Positions 51,582 through 56,257 of a DNA stretch of 57,232 nucleotides are shown here, piece by piece. How positions within the stretch are numbered: position 1 is the stretch's first letter; every line of letters starts with the position of its first letter. Below the pieces are notes generated by a model. It had not been told where the DNA came from and did no database searches. It worked only from the letters and a program-made list of their open reading frames with translations. The DNA comes from Desulfovibrio sp. (GTDB taxonomy: Bacteria > Desulfobacterota > Desulfovibrionia > Desulfovibrionales > Desulfovibrionaceae), in NCBI GenBank assembly GCA_031272715.1, contig JAISTH010000067.1, positions 1 through 57,232 on the forward strand, written 5' to 3'. The position numbers and the translations under genes are program-made.

Positions 51582-51787
51582 CAGGAGTGACCTTTCCTGA
51601 ACCAAGTCCTAACGGATGTTGCACCGCCCAACCCTCCGTGCTGTTTCCCGGAGTTCACGCGCCAGACCAAAGGGGGAAGGAGCCCCTCCGATGCAGACGC
51701 CCCCGGCCGTAGGGTGCGCAGTCTGCACGCGGCCACTTTACATGCCCGCGTCGACACGCGCAATGGGCGACTTCCATCCAGGAAGCG

Positions 51788-51816
51788 AGAATACACAAAA
51801 GTCAACTTCCTGTCAA
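51788..51816 (-). promoter_or_regulatory. Strong sigma70 promoter of the pyrR leader
   Basis: On the minus strand TTGACA (51816-51811), a 17-base spacer and TATTCT (51793-51788). Transcription would begin near 51781, about 340 bases before pyrR. Confidence 0.75.
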
Positions 51817-51960
51817 GAGGCGATATCCCAATTTGGCTACCTCGTCTGACAACGCTTCCCTCCGGGTTCGCCCCGGCGGCAGACGGCCTGGGGGCCGTCC
51901 GGGCCGAAGGGCGACGATTTTGGCGACGATGCGGCTTTCCACTGGATTTTTCCCCGCCCG

Positions 51961-51976
51961 GGGGAGTATACTCCCC
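51961..51976. promoter_or_regulatory. 16-bp perfect palindrome before the 579-residue gene
   Basis: GGGGAGTATACTCCCC is a perfect palindrome 50 bases before the ATG at 52026. Its centre TATACT could be a -10 element, so it may be an operator overlapping the promoter; no strong -35 is seen. Confidence 0.45.
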
Positions 51977-52025
51977 GCAGCCCACCCGCCCCGTTTTTTT
52001 CGAAAACCCCACGAGTCTCCGGCCC

Positions 52026-53765
52026 ATGTTCAACTGGCAAGACGTTTTCAGCAAGGACGGACGTCGCTGGCACCAGGACGGCGCTTCACTGCCCGACCCG
52101 GTGAGCCTCAGCACGCTCCCCGACCTGAAGGCCTTCCTGGACGCCGTGCACATCCGCACCTGCCTCGTGAAGCCCTACCAGGAGCACAAGAACTACCCCC
52201 TCGTCGAGTCCCGGGAGCTGCTGCCCTCCTTCGACAACGACATGTTCGAATACAAGACCCTGCCGGGATTCGCCCTCGTCGCCTTCGCCCGCCAGCTGAA
52301 CTACTTCGCGGAGATCTTCCAGTACGACAAGCTCTACCCGGTGATCACCGACGCCGACGGCGCCTGCTGCCCCCTGGAGAACCAGGTGCTGGCCTACAAC
52401 CTCCACACCCTGGCCTCGCGCCTGCCCCGGATGCACCAGGAGGTCTTCCGGCAGCAGTTCCGGTCCCTGGACACGGTGCAGCTGGAGAACTACCCGACGC
52501 TGCTGCCCTACCTGCTCAGCATGGACAGGGCCCACGTCATGTCCTGGGACGCCGCGAACAACTTCCACCTCTCCGGGGTCTACGCCTCCTTCCCCTCGGA
52601 CATCGACAGCGAACTCAAGCGCTTCGGGGTGCGCATAGGCAAGTTCGAGTTCGGCAACAACGAGATGTACGAGCGCAACCGCATGTTCGTGTACCAGTAC
52701 CTCATGGAGCTCTACGGCTTCCCCATCGTCTCCGAGCGCCGCACATCCAGCGCCCTCTTCGCCCGCAAGCTCCACCGCATCTGCGAGCCCTTCCTCATCC
52801 GCGTGCTGGGGCAGACCGACCGCACCCTGACCACCTACACCAACGTCTCCCCCACCTCCCCTTACCTGCAGCTGGAGAAGATCGCCCTGGTGTCGGTGGA
52901 TCCGGACCAGACCGAGGCGCTGGACATCATCGAGAAGGAGGGCTTCTTCCTGGACAACCGGCGACGGGCGGTGATCATGCGGGTCACCTACCGCCAGCAC
53001 CGCTTCGACCGCAGCAACGTGCGGCAGGACCGCGCCCTCTCCGTGGAGGGGCAGGAGATCCTCCATCCCCTGACGGGCAGGCCCCTCATGGGGCTGAACA
53101 TCATCAAGGACAGCACGAACATGTTCCTGCGGCTGAACGACATCGTCCGCGGGGAGTACACCGGCCGCACCCTCTACAAGCGCACGGAGATCGTGGAGAA
53201 CACCGACACGCCGGAGAAGCGCCTGAAGTTCCTCTACTCGTGGCTGAGCAAGCACCAGCGGCGGATGATCAGCTACAGCGACGAATTCTTCGGCAACGTG
53301 AGCAAGGTGCTGGACCACTACCTCTACTGCCCGGAGCACGAGGAGCCCTTCCACAGCCTGCCGGAACTCCACAAGGAGGTCTGCTCCCGGTTCAGCTACA
53401 TCCAGCAGGCGCGCACGGTGCGCATCCTCGACGACCTCTGCCAGCGCAACGTCAAGGGGGAGCGCATCACCTACGCCCAGATGCTCAAGGACATCGTGGA
53501 ACTGTGCACCAAGATCAAGTTCGACATCGGCAACTACTTCCCCGCCCTCGTCGACGAGATCATCGCCTGCGTGGACCGGGTCCTCCGGGACCGCTACATC
53601 CAGCGCACCTACATCGAGCCCTCCGAGGAATCCCTCACCCCGGCCGGGCAGGAGATCCGCAAGAGCTACCGCCGGCTGGTCTCCCTCCACGACGCCTTCA
53701 AGGCGGTGCGCAAGTCCCGGACCGCCACGGACTCCGCGGCCAAGGCGAAACAGGCCGTATCCTGA
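52026..53765 (+). CDS. Unknown 579-residue cytoplasmic protein
   Basis: I do not recognise the family. The protein starts MFNWQDVFSKDGRRWHQDG, has no signal peptide or membrane segment, and is rich in charged and aromatic residues with many predicted helices. Notable stretches are NNEMYERNRMFVYQYLMELYG (about residues 215-235) and a basic C-terminus. GC and codon use match core genes, and the frame is unbroken, so it is a real gene. The ORF opens further upstream, but coding-like sequence begins at 52026. It diverges from the pyrR leader, and the repeat array begins about 100 bases downstream. Confidence 0.8.
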   Translation: MFNWQDVFSKDGRRWHQDGASLPDPVSLSTLPDLKAFLDAVHIRTCLVKPYQEHKNYPLVESRELLPSFDNDMFEYKTLPGFALVAFARQLNYFAEIFQYDKLYPVITDADGACCPLENQVLAYNLHTLASRLPRMHQEVFRQQFRSLDTVQLENYPTLLPYLLSMDRAHVMSWDAANNFHLSGVYASFPSDIDSELKRFGVRIGKFEFGNNEMYERNRMFVYQYLMELYGFPIVSERRTSSALFARKLHRICEPFLIRVLGQTDRTLTTYTNVSPTSPYLQLEKIALVSVDPDQTEALDIIEKEGFFLDNRRRAVIMRVTYRQHRFDRSNVRQDRALSVEGQEILHPLTGRPLMGLNIIKDSTNMFLRLNDIVRGEYTGRTLYKRTEIVENTDTPEKRLKFLYSWLSKHQRRMISYSDEFFGNVSKVLDHYLYCPEHEEPFHSLPELHKEVCSRFSYIQQARTVRILDDLCQRNVKGERITYAQMLKDIVELCTKIKFDIGNYFPALVDEIIACVDRVLRDRYIQRTYIEPSEESLTPAGQEIRKSYRRLVSLHDAFKAVRKSRTATDSAAKAKQAVS

Positions 53766-53884: not shown

Positions 53885-54080
53885 GAACCGGTTCCTTCCC
53901 CGAAGCCCCCCTGGCCGGCACGCCGTCTGTGGCACGGGCCTTGCGCGCATGCTCCCCGCCCCAACGATCTGGCGTCTCGCCCCCGGAACATCCCGCATCC
54001 GAGGGTGGACGGCGGAGTGGAACCGGCACGACGGCCAACCGGGCGAAGTTTCATGGGGACAGGCCCCTGGCGGCCAAAAA
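53885..54080. repeat. Diverged direct repeat, right copy
   Basis: Partner of the stretch at 150-390 in the same orientation, with shared blocks around the CTGTGGCACG, CGCATGCTC and GGGTTTCAT/AAGTTTCATG segments. It lies immediately before the first small-RNA unit. A weak GGCCCCGGATC/GATCCGGGCC stem at 53771-53817 precedes it. Confidence 0.5.
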
Positions 54081-54123
54081 AGCCTTACGTTCACGGAATC
54101 ACCTTGGGGTCGGACGAAAAAAC

Positions 54124-54153
54124 TTGACATCCTGGTGGACGGTGTGCTATTTG
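54124..54153 (+). promoter_or_regulatory. Promoter of small-RNA unit 1
   Basis: TTGACA (54124-54129), 18-base spacer, TATTTG (54148-54153). The equivalent elements in units 2 and 3 read TTGACA-18-TATAAA, so this copy has a weakened -10. Confidence 0.6.
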
Positions 54154-54159
54154 GGAAAA

Positions 54160-54263
54160 GCGGAGGGGCAGGATGCGCTATACGTCCCCCCTCCCGGGGC
54201 AAACCCTCCGAGTTTGCAGTACTCGAAAGAAGCCCCCAGGATCGCGGCTTGGTCCTGGGGGCC
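54160..54263 (+). ncRNA. Small structured RNA, unit 1 (degenerate locus)
   Basis: Same architecture as the RNAs at 54438 and 55957: a 5-prime stem (GGAGGGG near 54161, pairing with CCCTCCC), then the unpaired GGGGC-N4-CCTCC motif (54196-54209), a CGAGT/ACTCG hairpin, and an intrinsic terminator (54232-54262, GCCCCCAGGA/TCCTGGGGGC). The peptide gene that should face it is broken, so this may be a solitary antitoxin-like RNA. Confidence 0.6.
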
Positions 54264-54307
54264 CTCGGTTTGCGGGGGCCTCGGTTTGCGGCGGCGGCAC
54301 CTTCGCC

Positions 54308-54362
54308 GTCAGACAACACCGTGGCCAGTACTCTGGGATCGCTGCGCCAACGGCCGAACCAA
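54308..54362 (-). pseudogene. Decayed copy of the 30-residue peptide gene
   Basis: On the minus strand a frame reads VGSAVGAAIPEYWPRCCL, clearly related to VGSAIGTVIAAYWLRCFF of the intact copies, but with two prolines inside the membrane segment, the stop lost, and the start, ribosome-binding site and 5-prime region deleted. Seen by eye against the intact copies. Confidence 0.65.
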
Positions 54363-54402
54363 CTCCTTGTTCGCACAATCGCCCTTGGCCCCGGCGAGGG
54401 TC

Positions 54403-54432
54403 TTGACATTCCGACGTGCGTCGTGCTATAAA
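54403..54432 (+). promoter_or_regulatory. Promoter of small RNA, unit 2
   Basis: TTGACA (54403-54408), 18-base spacer, TATAAA (54427-54432): one of the strongest promoter matches in the window, with no ORF downstream on this strand. Confidence 0.8.
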
Positions 54433-54437
54433 GAAAA

Positions 54438-54548
54438 AAGTGGAGGGGCAGGATGCTGTCAACATCCCACCCCTCCTGGGGCAAGCCCTCCGAGTTGATG
54501 TACTCGAACGACGCCCCTTAGGACCGCAGCGTGGTCCTAAGGGGCATT
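54438..54548 (+). ncRNA. Antitoxin-like small RNA, unit 2
   Basis: Predicted RNA of about 110 nt. It opens with a long stem-loop (GGAGGGG-CA-GGATG pairing with CATCC-CA-CCCCTCC). Then comes an unpaired segment with GGGGC (54478-54482) and CCTCC (54487-54491). A CGAGT/ACTCG hairpin and a perfect 13-bp terminator stem follow. The GGGGC and CCTCC blocks are complementary to GCCCC and GGAGG that flank and form the ribosome-binding site of the facing peptide gene. This is the expected design of a type I antitoxin. Ends are predicted from the promoter and terminator. Confidence 0.75.
54513..54545. terminator. Shared bidirectional terminator, unit 2
   Basis: GCCCCTTAGGACC (54513-54525) and GGTCCTAAGGGGC (54533-54545) form a perfect 13-bp stem. 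It lies at the 3-prime ends of both the plus-strand RNA and the minus-strand peptide transcript, so the two RNAs would be complementary over the whole hairpin. Confidence 0.75.
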
Positions 54549-54576
54549 TAGTTAGCGGTGATGGCGCCTTGCGCCG

Positions 54577-54669
54577 TTAGAAGAAACACCGCAACCAGTA
54601 AGCTGCAATCACCGTGCCGATGGCCGAACCGGCCGCCAACACGGCTATCTCCCGTAGGATTTTCGCCAC
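54577..54669 (-). CDS. 30-residue hydrophobic peptide, putative type I toxin (copy 2)
   Basis: GTG at 54669 opens VAKILREIAVLAAGS; the peptide ends VIAAYWLRCFF and is 30 residues long with one predicted membrane helix (about residues 8-26) after a short charged start. GGAGG (54678-54682) sits eight bases before the GTG, inside a CCUCC-GGAA-GGAGG hairpin whose loop is a GNRA tetraloop. Against the copy at 56098 seven codons differ; six changes are synonymous and one is Ala13 to Val, which is strong evidence of selection on the peptide. A minus-strand promoter lies about 40 bases upstream. Small hydrophobic peptides of this size are typical type I toxins that damage the inner membrane. Family not recognised. 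Confidence 0.8.
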   Translation of the reverse strand: MAKILREIAVLAAGSAIGTVIAAYWLRCFF

Positions 54670-54707
54670 GGGGCTAACCTCCTTCCGGAGGACTCGCCAC
54701 TGGCGGC

Positions 54708-54736
54708 ACCCTACCAGCTTTTTCGACGACCTTCAA
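54708..54736 (-). promoter_or_regulatory. Promoter of the peptide gene, unit 2
   Basis: On the minus strand TTGAAG (54736-54731), 17-base spacer, TAGGGT (54713-54708). The leader from here to the GTG is identical in the copy at 56191-56234. Confidence 0.65.
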
Positions 54737-54789
54737 GAAAAAACCGTTACAAAAAACGACTTCTGACGGCTCTCCTCCTTCGCCTGCCA

Positions 54790-55920
54790 AGCTCGACGGC
54801 TCCAGCAGCCCTTCCCGTCGCCACTGGTCGATCCCTCGCCGTTGAGATCCTCCGCCGCGACCATGATTGCCGCACCTTCGCCTACACTCCGCAAGTCCTC
54901 ATTGGCGCTCCGCGCCGCGACGACATGCTGGAGGCCTCACCCATCTGGTCGTCCAGGCCGCCCGCAGTGCTCGTCCCACTCCATCGACGATCCCGAACAC
55001 GACGTGACACCTGGCACGAGTCCACATCTGCCATCAGCCCCCCATCGCCACAGACGAAGACCCGTGGACACATCCCGGACATTCATACCCACACAAATGC
55101 ACACGGCCACACGGATTTGCTGGGTGAGCGAGGCGGCACGCAACACCGATGCCATCCGGGATGCAAGGACATCGGCGCCAGATCGACATGTCGGCACCTG
55201 ACGTCCACGGCCGACCCCACGCCCGCACATGGCTTGGGCCGGTGTACCTTGCCCCGACTGGCGCCGATCCCTTGGACACAGGCATTGATGCCTGCTCGAG
55301 CGGCGTCTGGACGCCACGGGACGCACCTCTGGATTCGTCGGAGAACCGCAACGGGAGCGACTTCGTCTGGTCCATCATCGTCCGCGGCACGTGCTGGTCC
55401 ACCATCGTCTGTGGCATGTGCTGGACCAGCATCATCATTGGACGATACCGGACCAATATCGTCTGCACATGTTCTGGTCCAAGGGATGTCCGCCTCAAAC
55501 CTGCGAGTCTAGACGTGCGGGCCGGCTCATCCTTGCCGCCCCATGGGCACGGCCGTTCCGGACAAGGCCGCCGGCCCATCCATTCGGCAACGTGGCGTTG
55601 CGGGAAGGCAGGCCCGTTTCTTGTTGTCCGCCCACGAGGAAGGCTGCGTTGCTGTCAGCATGGACGGCCCTGAAAAAAACGTGGCGTCCACGTGTATATT
55701 CTTCAAAGGTCTTGGGCATGGGGAGCGGGACGGCCCCGACATCAGGTCGTCGATGCCGACGCCTCAGCGCTGGGGCAGGACTGGACAGGACTTCCTGCGG
55801 TATCCCATGGCATCTGGGTTGGGCAGCGATTTCCCGGCATTGCCCTTGCGCATGCCCATGCATTCCCCCTGCGGCTTCCCGGAGGCGGACGCATCTTGCG
55901 GAGGCATCCGGGCGAGGGTC
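54790..55920. repeat. Spacer of the tandem repeat, first copy
   Basis: About 1.1 kb similar to 56310-57109, so the repeating unit includes this spacer as well as the peptide/RNA module. Best-conserved blocks: GACGTGACACCTGGCACGAG and following bases (55001 onward against 56511 onward), and a CACGTGTATATT-TTCAA block near 55690 against 56895. Minus-strand frames share PCP-PLKNIHV-AT and MADVDSCQVSRRV between copies, but no long open frame survives in both, so a decayed gene is possible and unproven. Confidence 0.6.
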
Positions 55921-55950
55921 TTGACATCCCGACTGGTACCGTGCTATAAA
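55921..55950 (+). promoter_or_regulatory. Promoter of small RNA, unit 3
   Basis: TTGACA (55921-55926), 18-base spacer, TATAAA (55945-55950), same as unit 2 although the spacer sequence differs at several positions. Confidence 0.8.
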
Positions 55951-55956
55951 GAAAAA

Positions 55957-56069
55957 AGCGGATGGGCAGGATGCACGCAACATCCCACCCCTCCTGAGGC
56001 AAGCCCTCCGAGATTATATTCTCAAGAAGACATGCCCCTTAGGACCGTGGCGCGGTCCTAAGGGGCACT
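55957..56069 (+). ncRNA. Antitoxin-like small RNA, unit 3
   Basis: Counterpart of the RNA at 54438. The order of elements is the same: 5-prime stem (GGATGGG-CA-GGATG with CATCC-CA-CCCCTCC), GAGGC (55996-56000) and CCTCC (56005-56009), a GAGA/TCTC hairpin, then the 13-bp terminator (56034-56066). The third hairpin changed from CGAGT/ACTCG to GAGA/TCTC with both arms altered, so pairing is kept. Confidence 0.75.
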
Positions 56070-56097
56070 TAGTTAGCGGTGATGGCGCCTCTCGCCA

Positions 56098-56190
56098 TTA
56101 GAAGAAACACCGTAGCCAGTAAGCAGCGATCACCGTGCCGATGGCCGAACCGACCGCCAACACGGCAATCTCCCGAAGGATTTTTGCCAC
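56098..56190 (-). CDS. 30-residue hydrophobic peptide, putative type I toxin (copy 3)
   Basis: GTG at 56190 opens VAKILREIAVLAVGS and the peptide ends VIAAYWLRCFF, one residue different from the copy at 54577. The ribosome-binding site, its sequestering hairpin and the 5-prime leader are identical to those of copy 2 over about 65 bases, whereas the inter-unit spacer has diverged widely, so the leader and peptide are under constraint. It faces the RNA at 55957 across a shared terminator. Function as a membrane-acting toxin is inferred from architecture. Confidence 0.8.
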   Translation of the reverse strand: MAKILREIAVLAVGSAIGTVIAAYWLRCFF

Positions 56191-56228
56191 GGGGCTAACC
56201 TCCTTCCGGAGGACTCGCCACTGGCGGC

Positions 56229-56257
56229 ACCCTACCAGCTTTTTCGACGGCCTTCAA
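56229..56257 (-). promoter_or_regulatory. Promoter of the peptide gene, unit 3
   Basis: On the minus strand TTGAAG (56257-56252), 17-base spacer, TAGGGT (56234-56229), identical in both elements to unit 2. Confidence 0.65.

What the first reader, a model, noticed from the sequence alone, without database searches (positions are those of the whole stretch)
54403..56257. Tandem par/Fst-like type I toxin-antitoxin modules with an unrecognised 30-residue peptide
Seen in two copies: a plus-strand TTGACA-18-TATAAA promoter, a roughly 110-nt structured RNA, a perfect 13-bp bidirectional terminator, and facing it a minus-strand 30-codon GTG-started hydrophobic peptide with its own TTGAAG-17-TAGGGT promoter. 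Convergent RNAs sharing a terminator is the layout of the enterococcal par (Fst) locus. Between copies the peptide differs at seven codons, six silently and one Ala to Val. The peptide family is not one I recognise, and I know of no such system described in desulfovibrios.
Basis: partly seen in the sequence, partly recalled or inferred. Interest (0 to 1): 0.92.

Follow-up and report, generated by a model that had tools for sequence, protein, structure and literature searches.

The report
Par-like toxin–antitoxin family in desulfovibrios
Two repeated DNA modules in a probable Desulfovibrio genome each appear to encode a tiny membrane peptide and a facing small RNA that should silence it, and they belong to a large, apparently undescribed family of such toxin–antitoxin modules in related bacteria and their prophages.

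Summary
Promoters, structured RNA, 13-bp palindromic hairpin and facing 30-codon GTG peptide are at the stated places in both copies. A third, decayed copy lies at 54123-54400. The genome has 11 antitoxin-RNA loci and 8 peptide hits. A covariance model of the RNA finds relatives in 80 of 348 genomes of the order, own genome included (E<=1e-4), 15 of 37 in a second Desulfobacterota family, Desulfovibrio piger ATCC 29098 and 9 IMG/VR contigs.

RNA and peptide profiles co-locate: 72 of 78 peptide hits face an RNA hit, 0.01 expected; 36 of the 72 were in neither training set. RNA stems covary, Shine-Dalgarno sequences sit in hairpins, the RNA linker is anti-Shine-Dalgarno, and the peptides' leading NCBIfam matches are type I toxins, absent from shuffled controls.

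Best reading: a type I toxin-antitoxin family with par-like layout. Correction: U-tracts suggest the toxin mRNA ends at the antitoxin's 5' hairpin, not at a shared terminator. The window peptide passes no Fst/Ldr model. Transcription and toxicity are untested.

The parts
54403..54432 (+). antitoxin promoter, copy A (TTGACA-18-TATAAA)
   Evidence: the -35 is identical in the 8 close copies of the genome, the -10 varies
54438..54548 (+). antitoxin RNA, copy A (predicted)
   Evidence: models R1/R2/R3; transcription start inferred from the -10
54442..54476 (+). antitoxin 5' hairpin 1; read on the minus strand it is followed by ACTTTTTTCT and is the likely toxin mRNA terminator
54478..54491 (+). 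antitoxin linker GGGGCAAGCCCTCC, antisense to the toxin SD/start region
54513..54545 (.). central hairpin, 13-bp perfect stem, read by both transcripts
   Evidence: covarying stem
54577..54669 (-). toxin peptide, 30 codons, GTG start, MAKILREIAVLAAGSAIGTVIAAYWLRCFF
54678..54691 (-). Shine-Dalgarno hairpin CCTCC-GGAA-GGAGG upstream of the toxin start
54708..54736 (-). toxin promoter TTGAAG-17-TAGGGT, copy A
   Evidence: best box pair at 67 nt from the start; 65-69 nt in 15 of 35 modules, these copies included
55921..55950 (+). antitoxin promoter, copy B
55956..56069 (+). antitoxin RNA, copy B (hairpin 1 55960-55994, linker 55996-56009)
56034..56066 (.). central hairpin, copy B
56098..56190 (-). 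toxin peptide, copy B, MAKILREIAVLAVGSAIGTVIAAYWLRCFF
56199..56212 (-). Shine-Dalgarno hairpin, copy B
56229..56257 (-). toxin promoter, copy B
54123..54267 (+). third copy: antitoxin promoter and RNA, hairpins 54162-54194 and 54232-54262
54313..54366 (-). decayed toxin remnant of the third copy
   Evidence: residues 12-29, 50% identity, E 0.2, inside a longer frame

Best explanation
Each module is a type I toxin-antitoxin locus. The minus-strand transcript encodes a hydrophobic peptide of about 24-30 residues with basic residues near its C-terminus, which by analogy inserts in the inner membrane and stops growth when made. Its Shine-Dalgarno sequence is held in a local hairpin. The plus-strand ~110-nt RNA is the antitoxin: a 5' hairpin, a linker that carries an anti-Shine-Dalgarno stretch, and a 3' hairpin. 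It is expected to pair with the toxin mRNA over the facing region and at the ribosome-binding site, blocking translation and probably leading to RNase III cleavage. U-tract positions suggest that the toxin mRNA runs through the central hairpin and ends opposite the antitoxin's 5' end, so the antitoxin would be fully antisense to its 3' UTR. Shown here: gene anatomy, conservation, covariation, co-location, coding constraint and family resemblance. Inferred: transcription, RNA-RNA pairing in cells, toxicity, membrane target and biological role.
For: Co-location of two profiles: 72 of 78 peptide hits in 16 genomes lie convergent to an RNA hit, gaps 6-39 nt (median 9), expected 0.01; 36 of the 72 modules are in neither training set, though they can be close relatives of trained ones. 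ORF test: 50 of 65 distinct RNA loci have an SD-preceded hydrophobic 19-40 aa ORF in place, against mean 1.7 (max 4) of 65 in shuffled DNA; 17 of the 65 came from a toxin-side DNA pattern, so the unbiased figure is 35 of the 48 found by RNA model alone. RNA: 23 of 26 pairs with two-sided changes, 91.7% of cells paired against 67.9% shuffled, 0 of 500. SD pairing probability 0.97 against 0.70 with flanks shuffled, n 35; linker:start-region duplex -15.6 against -9.6 kcal/mol for shuffled linkers, better in 35 of 35. Peptide under constraint: pooled pN/pS 0.44 over 97 non-independent pairs. NCBIfam scan of 53 peptides: CD_typeI_toxin matched by 25 and Fst by 6 at E<=0.1, neither in 53 shuffled peptides; Pfam Ldr 5 and Fst 1, neither in shuffled; best PDB sequence match of the peptide profile is LdrD, E 0.067. 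Antitoxin-only loci are commoner than toxin-only ones: 32 of 104 RNA loci without a peptide hit; 6 of 78 peptide hits without an RNA hit, two of them at contig ends.
Against: No expression or toxicity data. Most family matches are below curated cut-offs; of the scores printed individually, one peptide passes a type I toxin cut-off (Fst), and one (G057) passes the TAT-signal domain cut-off (18.3 against 16.7), which I take as chance. PAP2 is the commonest Pfam match (8 of 53). Linker:SD pairing is not cognate-specific (permutation p 0.09, Wilcoxon p 0.35, thinned set p 0.15; whole-linker test p 0.21). The linker's first 18 nt are predicted only a little more open than the rest of the antitoxin (0.41 against 0.31 unpaired). 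The YUNR U-turn of par is rare in the toxin hairpin loop (5 of 35). Toxin promoters are weak matches (7.4 against 6.8 of 12 in shuffles). Some array neighbours differ only by amino-acid changes (L131 pairs). Copy c7 lacks the usual SD hairpin. The surplus of antitoxin-only loci may partly reflect lower sensitivity for short peptides. The T-run after hairpin 1 on the toxin strand could instead reflect the A-rich start of the antitoxin unit.
Confidence: 0.86

Rival explanations
1. Strict par architecture (a variant within the type I reading): both RNAs end at the one central hairpin, they pair first at that hairpin, and the antitoxin linker then covers the toxin start, as in pAD1 par.
For: Perfect shared palindrome, SD hairpin and anti-SD linker; in the window the stem is called terminator-like, on + for copy A and on - for copy B.
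Against: On the toxin strand the central hairpin has a U-tract in only 2 of 48 members, against 38 of 48 for hairpin 1. YUNR in 5 of 35 toxin loops.
Confidence: 0.35
2. A small membrane regulator (not a toxin) under antisense RNA control, for example modulating a membrane enzyme or a phage process.
For: No toxicity data; some copies sit inside prophage packaging genes or next to an endolysin gene, where small membrane proteins of other roles exist.
Against: Tandem multicopy arrays, antitoxin-only loci, and leading NCBIfam and PDB matches to type I toxins.
Confidence: 0.1
3. The peptide is a chance ORF and the repeat is only a mobile or structural RNA element.
For: The region is repetitive; the flank 53900-54122 matches 23 other places in the genome.
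Against: ORF in the same place across genera, pN/pS 0.44, SD and its hairpin kept; the repeated flank mostly lies on contigs or at places without modules.
Confidence: 0.02

Closest known systems
par/Fst of Enterococcus faecalis pAD1 (Fst/Ldr superfamily)
   Same: Convergent toxin and antitoxin units, shared palindromic hairpin, SD-sequestering stem-loop, antitoxin complementary to the translation start, ~30 aa membrane-type peptide; one relative reaches NCBIfam Fst (26.6 against cut-off 26).
   Different: Gram-negative Desulfobacterota; no PXXXG in 53 peptides; W near the C-terminus in 10 of 53; U-tracts favour separate terminators; one bipartite anti-SD stretch, not two demonstrated direct repeats.
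ldr/rdl of enterobacteria
   Same: Gram-negative hosts, related peptide profile (Pfam Ldr 5 of 53 at E<=0.1; LdrD best PDB match); tandem copies (for ldr, recalled).
   Different: ldr/rdl is regulated more like hok/sok than like par (PMC7472228, section 4); here the RNAs converge.
Clostridioides difficile type I modules (CD2517.1-RCd8 and kin)
   Same: Convergent overlapping genes, prophage association, 25 of 53 peptides match NF047374 at E<=0.1.
   Different: The described C. difficile toxins are 47-53 aa, with homologs of 30-56 aa, and have a lysine-rich tail (PMC6563280 passages); here about 24-30 aa, and every printed match is far under the 60-bit cut-off.
txpA/RatA and bsrG/SR4 of Bacillus (recalled; only named in passages seen)
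   Same: Antitoxin antisense to the toxin mRNA 3' region, as proposed here from U-tracts.
   Different: Longer toxins (recalled); not compared by sequence here.

Membership tests
Fst/par | convergent promoters facing each other | tested here: met
   sequence-level; the toxin promoter is a weak match
Fst/par | one bidirectional intrinsic terminator shared by both RNAs | tested here: inconclusive
   shared stem met; U-tract on toxin strand 2 of 48, on antitoxin strand 15 of 48
Fst/par | 5' stem-loop sequestering the toxin SD | tested here: met
   SD pairing probability 0.97 against 0.70, >0.9 in 31 of 35; exception c7
Fst/par | antitoxin complementary to the toxin start region (DRa/DRb in par) | tested here: met
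   35 of 35 better than the shuffled mean; not cognate-specific; two separate direct repeats not shown
Fst/par | U-turn YUNR in the toxin terminator loop | tested here: not met
   5 of 35; PMC7472228 says not all homologs have it
Fst/Ldr superfamily peptide | tryptophan between the TM helix and the charged C-terminus | tested here: inconclusive
   W in the last 9 residues in 10 of 53; present in the window peptide (AYWLRCFF); replaced by valine in the Fst pAD1 prototype
Fst/Ldr superfamily peptide | P/D/S/TXXXG motif (majority of members) | tested here: not met
   12 of 53, PXXXG 0 of 53, not in the window peptide
Fst/Ldr superfamily peptide | curated profile match | tested here: not met
   window peptide: none in Pfam (copy A), no Fst in NCBIfam (both copies); one relative passes NF033608
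type I toxin-antitoxin | RNA antitoxin antisense to the toxin mRNA | tested here: met
   sequence-level only
type I toxin-antitoxin | peptide toxic, RNA protects | not testable with these tools
   needs expression experiments

The most novel reading that the evidence does not exclude
A family of type I modules spread over several families of Desulfobacterota, with a hybrid control logic: a convergent antitoxin nested in the toxin mRNA's 3' UTR that also mimics the toxin's own anti-SD arm and attacks the ribosome-binding site. It is kept in tandem arrays and as prophage morons within packaging genes, so that antitoxin-only copies in the chromosome can neutralise toxins of related prophages in trans.
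Probability: 0.3. Interest if true: 0.85.

Novelty: new variant of a known kind. Interest (0 to 1): 0.74.

Why it matters
A 2025 paper (PMC12390103, abstract and passages) says type I systems were known only from Proteobacteria, Firmicutes and Tenericutes before its cyanobacterial case; whether its 'Proteobacteria' was meant to include the former deltaproteobacteria I could not tell. A family found in 80 of 348 genomes of one order would widen that range, bring par-like layout into Gram-negative bacteria, where the related Ldr toxins are said to be regulated differently (PMC7472228), and give a testable system in a cultured species, D. piger. It also shows how to find such loci: with an RNA covariance model rather than a 30-residue peptide query. 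The antitoxin-only copies make trans-protection against related prophages directly testable.

Tried and rejected
Single-peptide searches, scans with the alignment of five own-genome peptides and its profile in the genus found nothing credible beyond the genome; the hits were weak and mostly short stretches of longer ORFs. The first RNA model broke this open.

Rfam at gathering thresholds finds only one tRNA in the window. Other loci were not scanned with Rfam.

Cognate specificity of linker:SD pairing was tested and not found. The par U-turn was tested and mostly absent, though a YUNR occurs in the antitoxin hairpin 1 loop in 19 of 34; what that loop would touch was not worked out.

A mobile-repeat explanation was considered because of the repeated flank and set aside, as the flank mostly occurs away from modules.

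Plasmid and phage record collections gave no match to the D. piger module DNA. Of the 17 phylum-sample loci read, five have a credible peptide (L149, L150, L151, L153, L164); the others, among them two same-genus loci with good RNA scores (L152, L154), show none, or a doubtful one (L155), or an unrelated ORF. Of 13 further loci in the second family, 8 showed a peptide by the automatic rule. The peptide side of the one hit in another family of the order (G330) was not looked at.

Rows left out of counts: 7 partial or antisense rows of the 111. Of the 34 rows, 23 went into; left out were 4 duplicates, 2 cut by contig ends and 5 partial or antisense rows. The 71 loci fell to 65 after identical antitoxins were merged. 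Of the 22 pattern loci, 16 are supported by the RNA model; unsupported are L123 (Microvirga), L128 (Desulfosarcina), L133 (Bacteriovoracaceae) and L139 (Aquimarina), and L129 and L138, whose match lies near the edge of the fetched stretch.
Full report
WHAT IS THERE. A third copy at 54123-54400 keeps the antitoxin RNA and a decayed peptide. Copies A and B are part of a ~1.5 kb tandem duplication whose best-conserved parts are the modules. In the same genome (101 contigs, 80% complete) further copies lie on three other contigs: in all 11 antitoxin loci and 8 peptide-profile hits. Three of the 11 (third copy in the window, C31:30296, C100:10829) have the RNA and no peptide hit.

FINDING THE FAMILY. 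The peptide and a profile of the five close own-genome peptides find nothing credible outside the genome. A covariance model of eight antitoxin copies (R1) found three more divergent copies at home and clear hits in three other species of the genus. Each of these six had, facing the RNA and a few bases beyond the central hairpin, a hydrophobic peptide of a different sequence; a weaker seventh locus, G019:C63, had none. Models R2 and R3 extended this: 76 of 288 genomes of the family at E<=0.1 with R2 (weak hits included), 80 of 348 of the order at E<=1e-4 with R3, own genome included and 79 of them in the same family, 17 of 395 in an even sample of the phylum at E<=1e-3 (several of them probably chance), and 15 of 37 at E<=1e-4 in a second, unnamed family (a few of them weak). 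In the wide searches only the best few candidates per genome were scored, so copy numbers there are lower bounds. Sixteen genomes that already had hits, searched more fully, gave 111 rows, 104 of them taken as antitoxin loci; 12 rows in the own genome and 3 to 11 in the others. Named hosts from a toxin-side DNA pattern scan, supported by R2 in 16 of 22 loci, include Desulfovibrio piger ATCC 29098, Mailhella sp., a water-buffalo rumen Desulfovibrionaceae MAG and several Desulfovibrio sp. MAGs. G057, of the window's genus, has a contig of the same length as the D. piger scaffold NZ_DS996354 with the same module, so the window's genus is probably Desulfovibrio in the GTDB sense (inference).

IT IS MORE THAN CHANCE. 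Fifty of 65 distinct antitoxin loci have a qualifying ORF in place, against a mean of 1.7 and at most 4 in shuffled downstream DNA. Since 17 of the 65 were fetched with a toxin-side pattern, the cleaner figure is 35 of the 48 found by RNA model alone. Searching 16 genomes once with the RNA model and once with the peptide profile, 72 of 78 peptide hits face an RNA hit at 6-39 nt, with 0.01 expected; 36 of these 72 modules were in neither training set, though they can be close relatives of trained ones. No peptide hit lies on the same strand as an RNA hit within 300 nt. Covariation on 48 antitoxins: 23 of 26 pairs with two-sided changes, 91.7% paired against 67.9% in shuffles and 40-52% when the partners are slid (the alignment was fitted to the structure, which favours it). 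Peptide codons are constrained: pooled pN/pS 0.44 over 97 overlapping pairs, although some pairs within the L131 array differ by amino-acid changes only. A control of the RNA model on unrelated genomes was not run.

HOW IT PROBABLY WORKS. The toxin SD lies in a hairpin (commonly CTCCGAAAGGAGG), with mean pairing probability 0.97 against 0.70 when flanks are shuffled. The first 20 nt of the antitoxin linker pair with SD-to-start at -15.6 kcal/mol, against -9.6 for shuffled linkers (35 of 35 better) and -9.5 for other windows of the coding sequence (32 of 35 better). This pairing is not specific to the cognate partner, so antitoxins of paralogous modules could act in trans at this site; full antisense pairing elsewhere would be specific. 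The linker is predicted only slightly more open than the rest of the antitoxin (0.41 against 0.31). In copy A the tail after hairpin 1 is ACTTTTTTCT. I therefore favour separate ends: antitoxin at the central hairpin, toxin mRNA opposite the antitoxin's 5' end, so that its 3' UTR is antisense to the whole antitoxin. The A-rich start of the antitoxin unit is a confounder, and 3' end mapping must decide. Weak toxin promoters are supported mainly by position: best box pair at 65-69 nt from the start in 15 of 35.

WHAT THE PEPTIDE RESEMBLES. Scanning 53 peptides against NCBIfam at E<=0.1, the two most-matched families are type I toxins: C. difficile type (25) and Fst (6), neither matched by 53 shuffled peptides; TAT signal is matched by 4. 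In Pfam, PAP2 is matched by 8, Ldr by 5 and Fst by 1, none of these by shuffled peptides. The best PDB sequence match of the profile is LdrD at E 0.067. Among scores printed one by one, a single peptide passes a type I toxin cut-off (G040, 26.6 against 26); ten peptides, mostly of the second family, pass none; and the window peptide passes none. Par features from Weaver 2020 (PMC7472228: abstract, passages, sections 4 and 6) are met for layout and SD control, and unmet for the XXXG motif and U-turn. I therefore say it works like par and overlaps the Fst/Ldr and C. difficile toxin profiles, without filing it as Fst.

CONTEXT. In D. piger one module lies between terminase large subunit and portal genes. 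Of 31 module loci checked with eight phage proteins, six had such a neighbour within 5 kb: the D. piger place (fetched twice, L091 and L126), G019 (L092) and viral contig L167 with the same portal neighbourhood, and L166 and L175 next to an endolysin gene. The other 25, including the C3, C31 and C100 copies of the own genome, had none of these eight, which is weak evidence of absence. Nine IMG/VR contigs carry the module. Both prophage and chromosomal settings are likely.

LITERATURE. Searches for type I toxin-antitoxin with Desulfovibrio (7 papers, listing and abstract starts seen, none on this), with Desulfobacter (one paper, passages read, no such system there), D. piger with small RNA and toxin-antitoxin (0), and Fst with Desulfovibrio and antisense RNA (0) gave no report of this family; nor did the listings. 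Passages only were read of PMC6563280 and PMC12390103; 'desulf' does not occur in these two nor in PMC7472228. The library lacks most subscription papers, including the T1TAdb paper, so a prior listing elsewhere cannot be excluded.

Noticed in passing
window 53900-54122: A ~200-nt dispersed repeat: 23 further matches in the genome (68-80% identity), mostly away from the modules; identity unknown.
   Followed up: partly
window 51714-53765 (+): Long ORF (683 aa from the first start) directly upstream of the array with no Pfam match at E<=10 and no PHROG match at E<=1e-5.
   Followed up: partly
L131 6154-7516 (Desulfovibrio sp. Nm470_bin149): Five modules head to tail at 301-307 nt spacing, a compact array.
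   Followed up: partly
L126 1683-2530 (D. piger ATCC 29098): Module sits between phage terminase large subunit and portal genes, just before a small ORF that recurs in G019; a moron-like position.
   Followed up: partly
antitoxin hairpin 1 loop, family-wide: Loop often contains a YUNR (U-turn) sequence such as CUGGUAA or CGCUAA (19 of 34); target unknown.
   Followed up: no
L094 and L077 (G019:C63): Antitoxin RNA without a peptide hit, followed downstream by a small plus-strand ORF that looks membrane-spanning (read by eye: MEKLKRIADILEKLGVAGIALAIYQ...).
   Followed up: no
window 55368-55455: Imperfect inverted repeat of 37-nt arms (70%) in the spacer between copies A and B.
   Followed up: no
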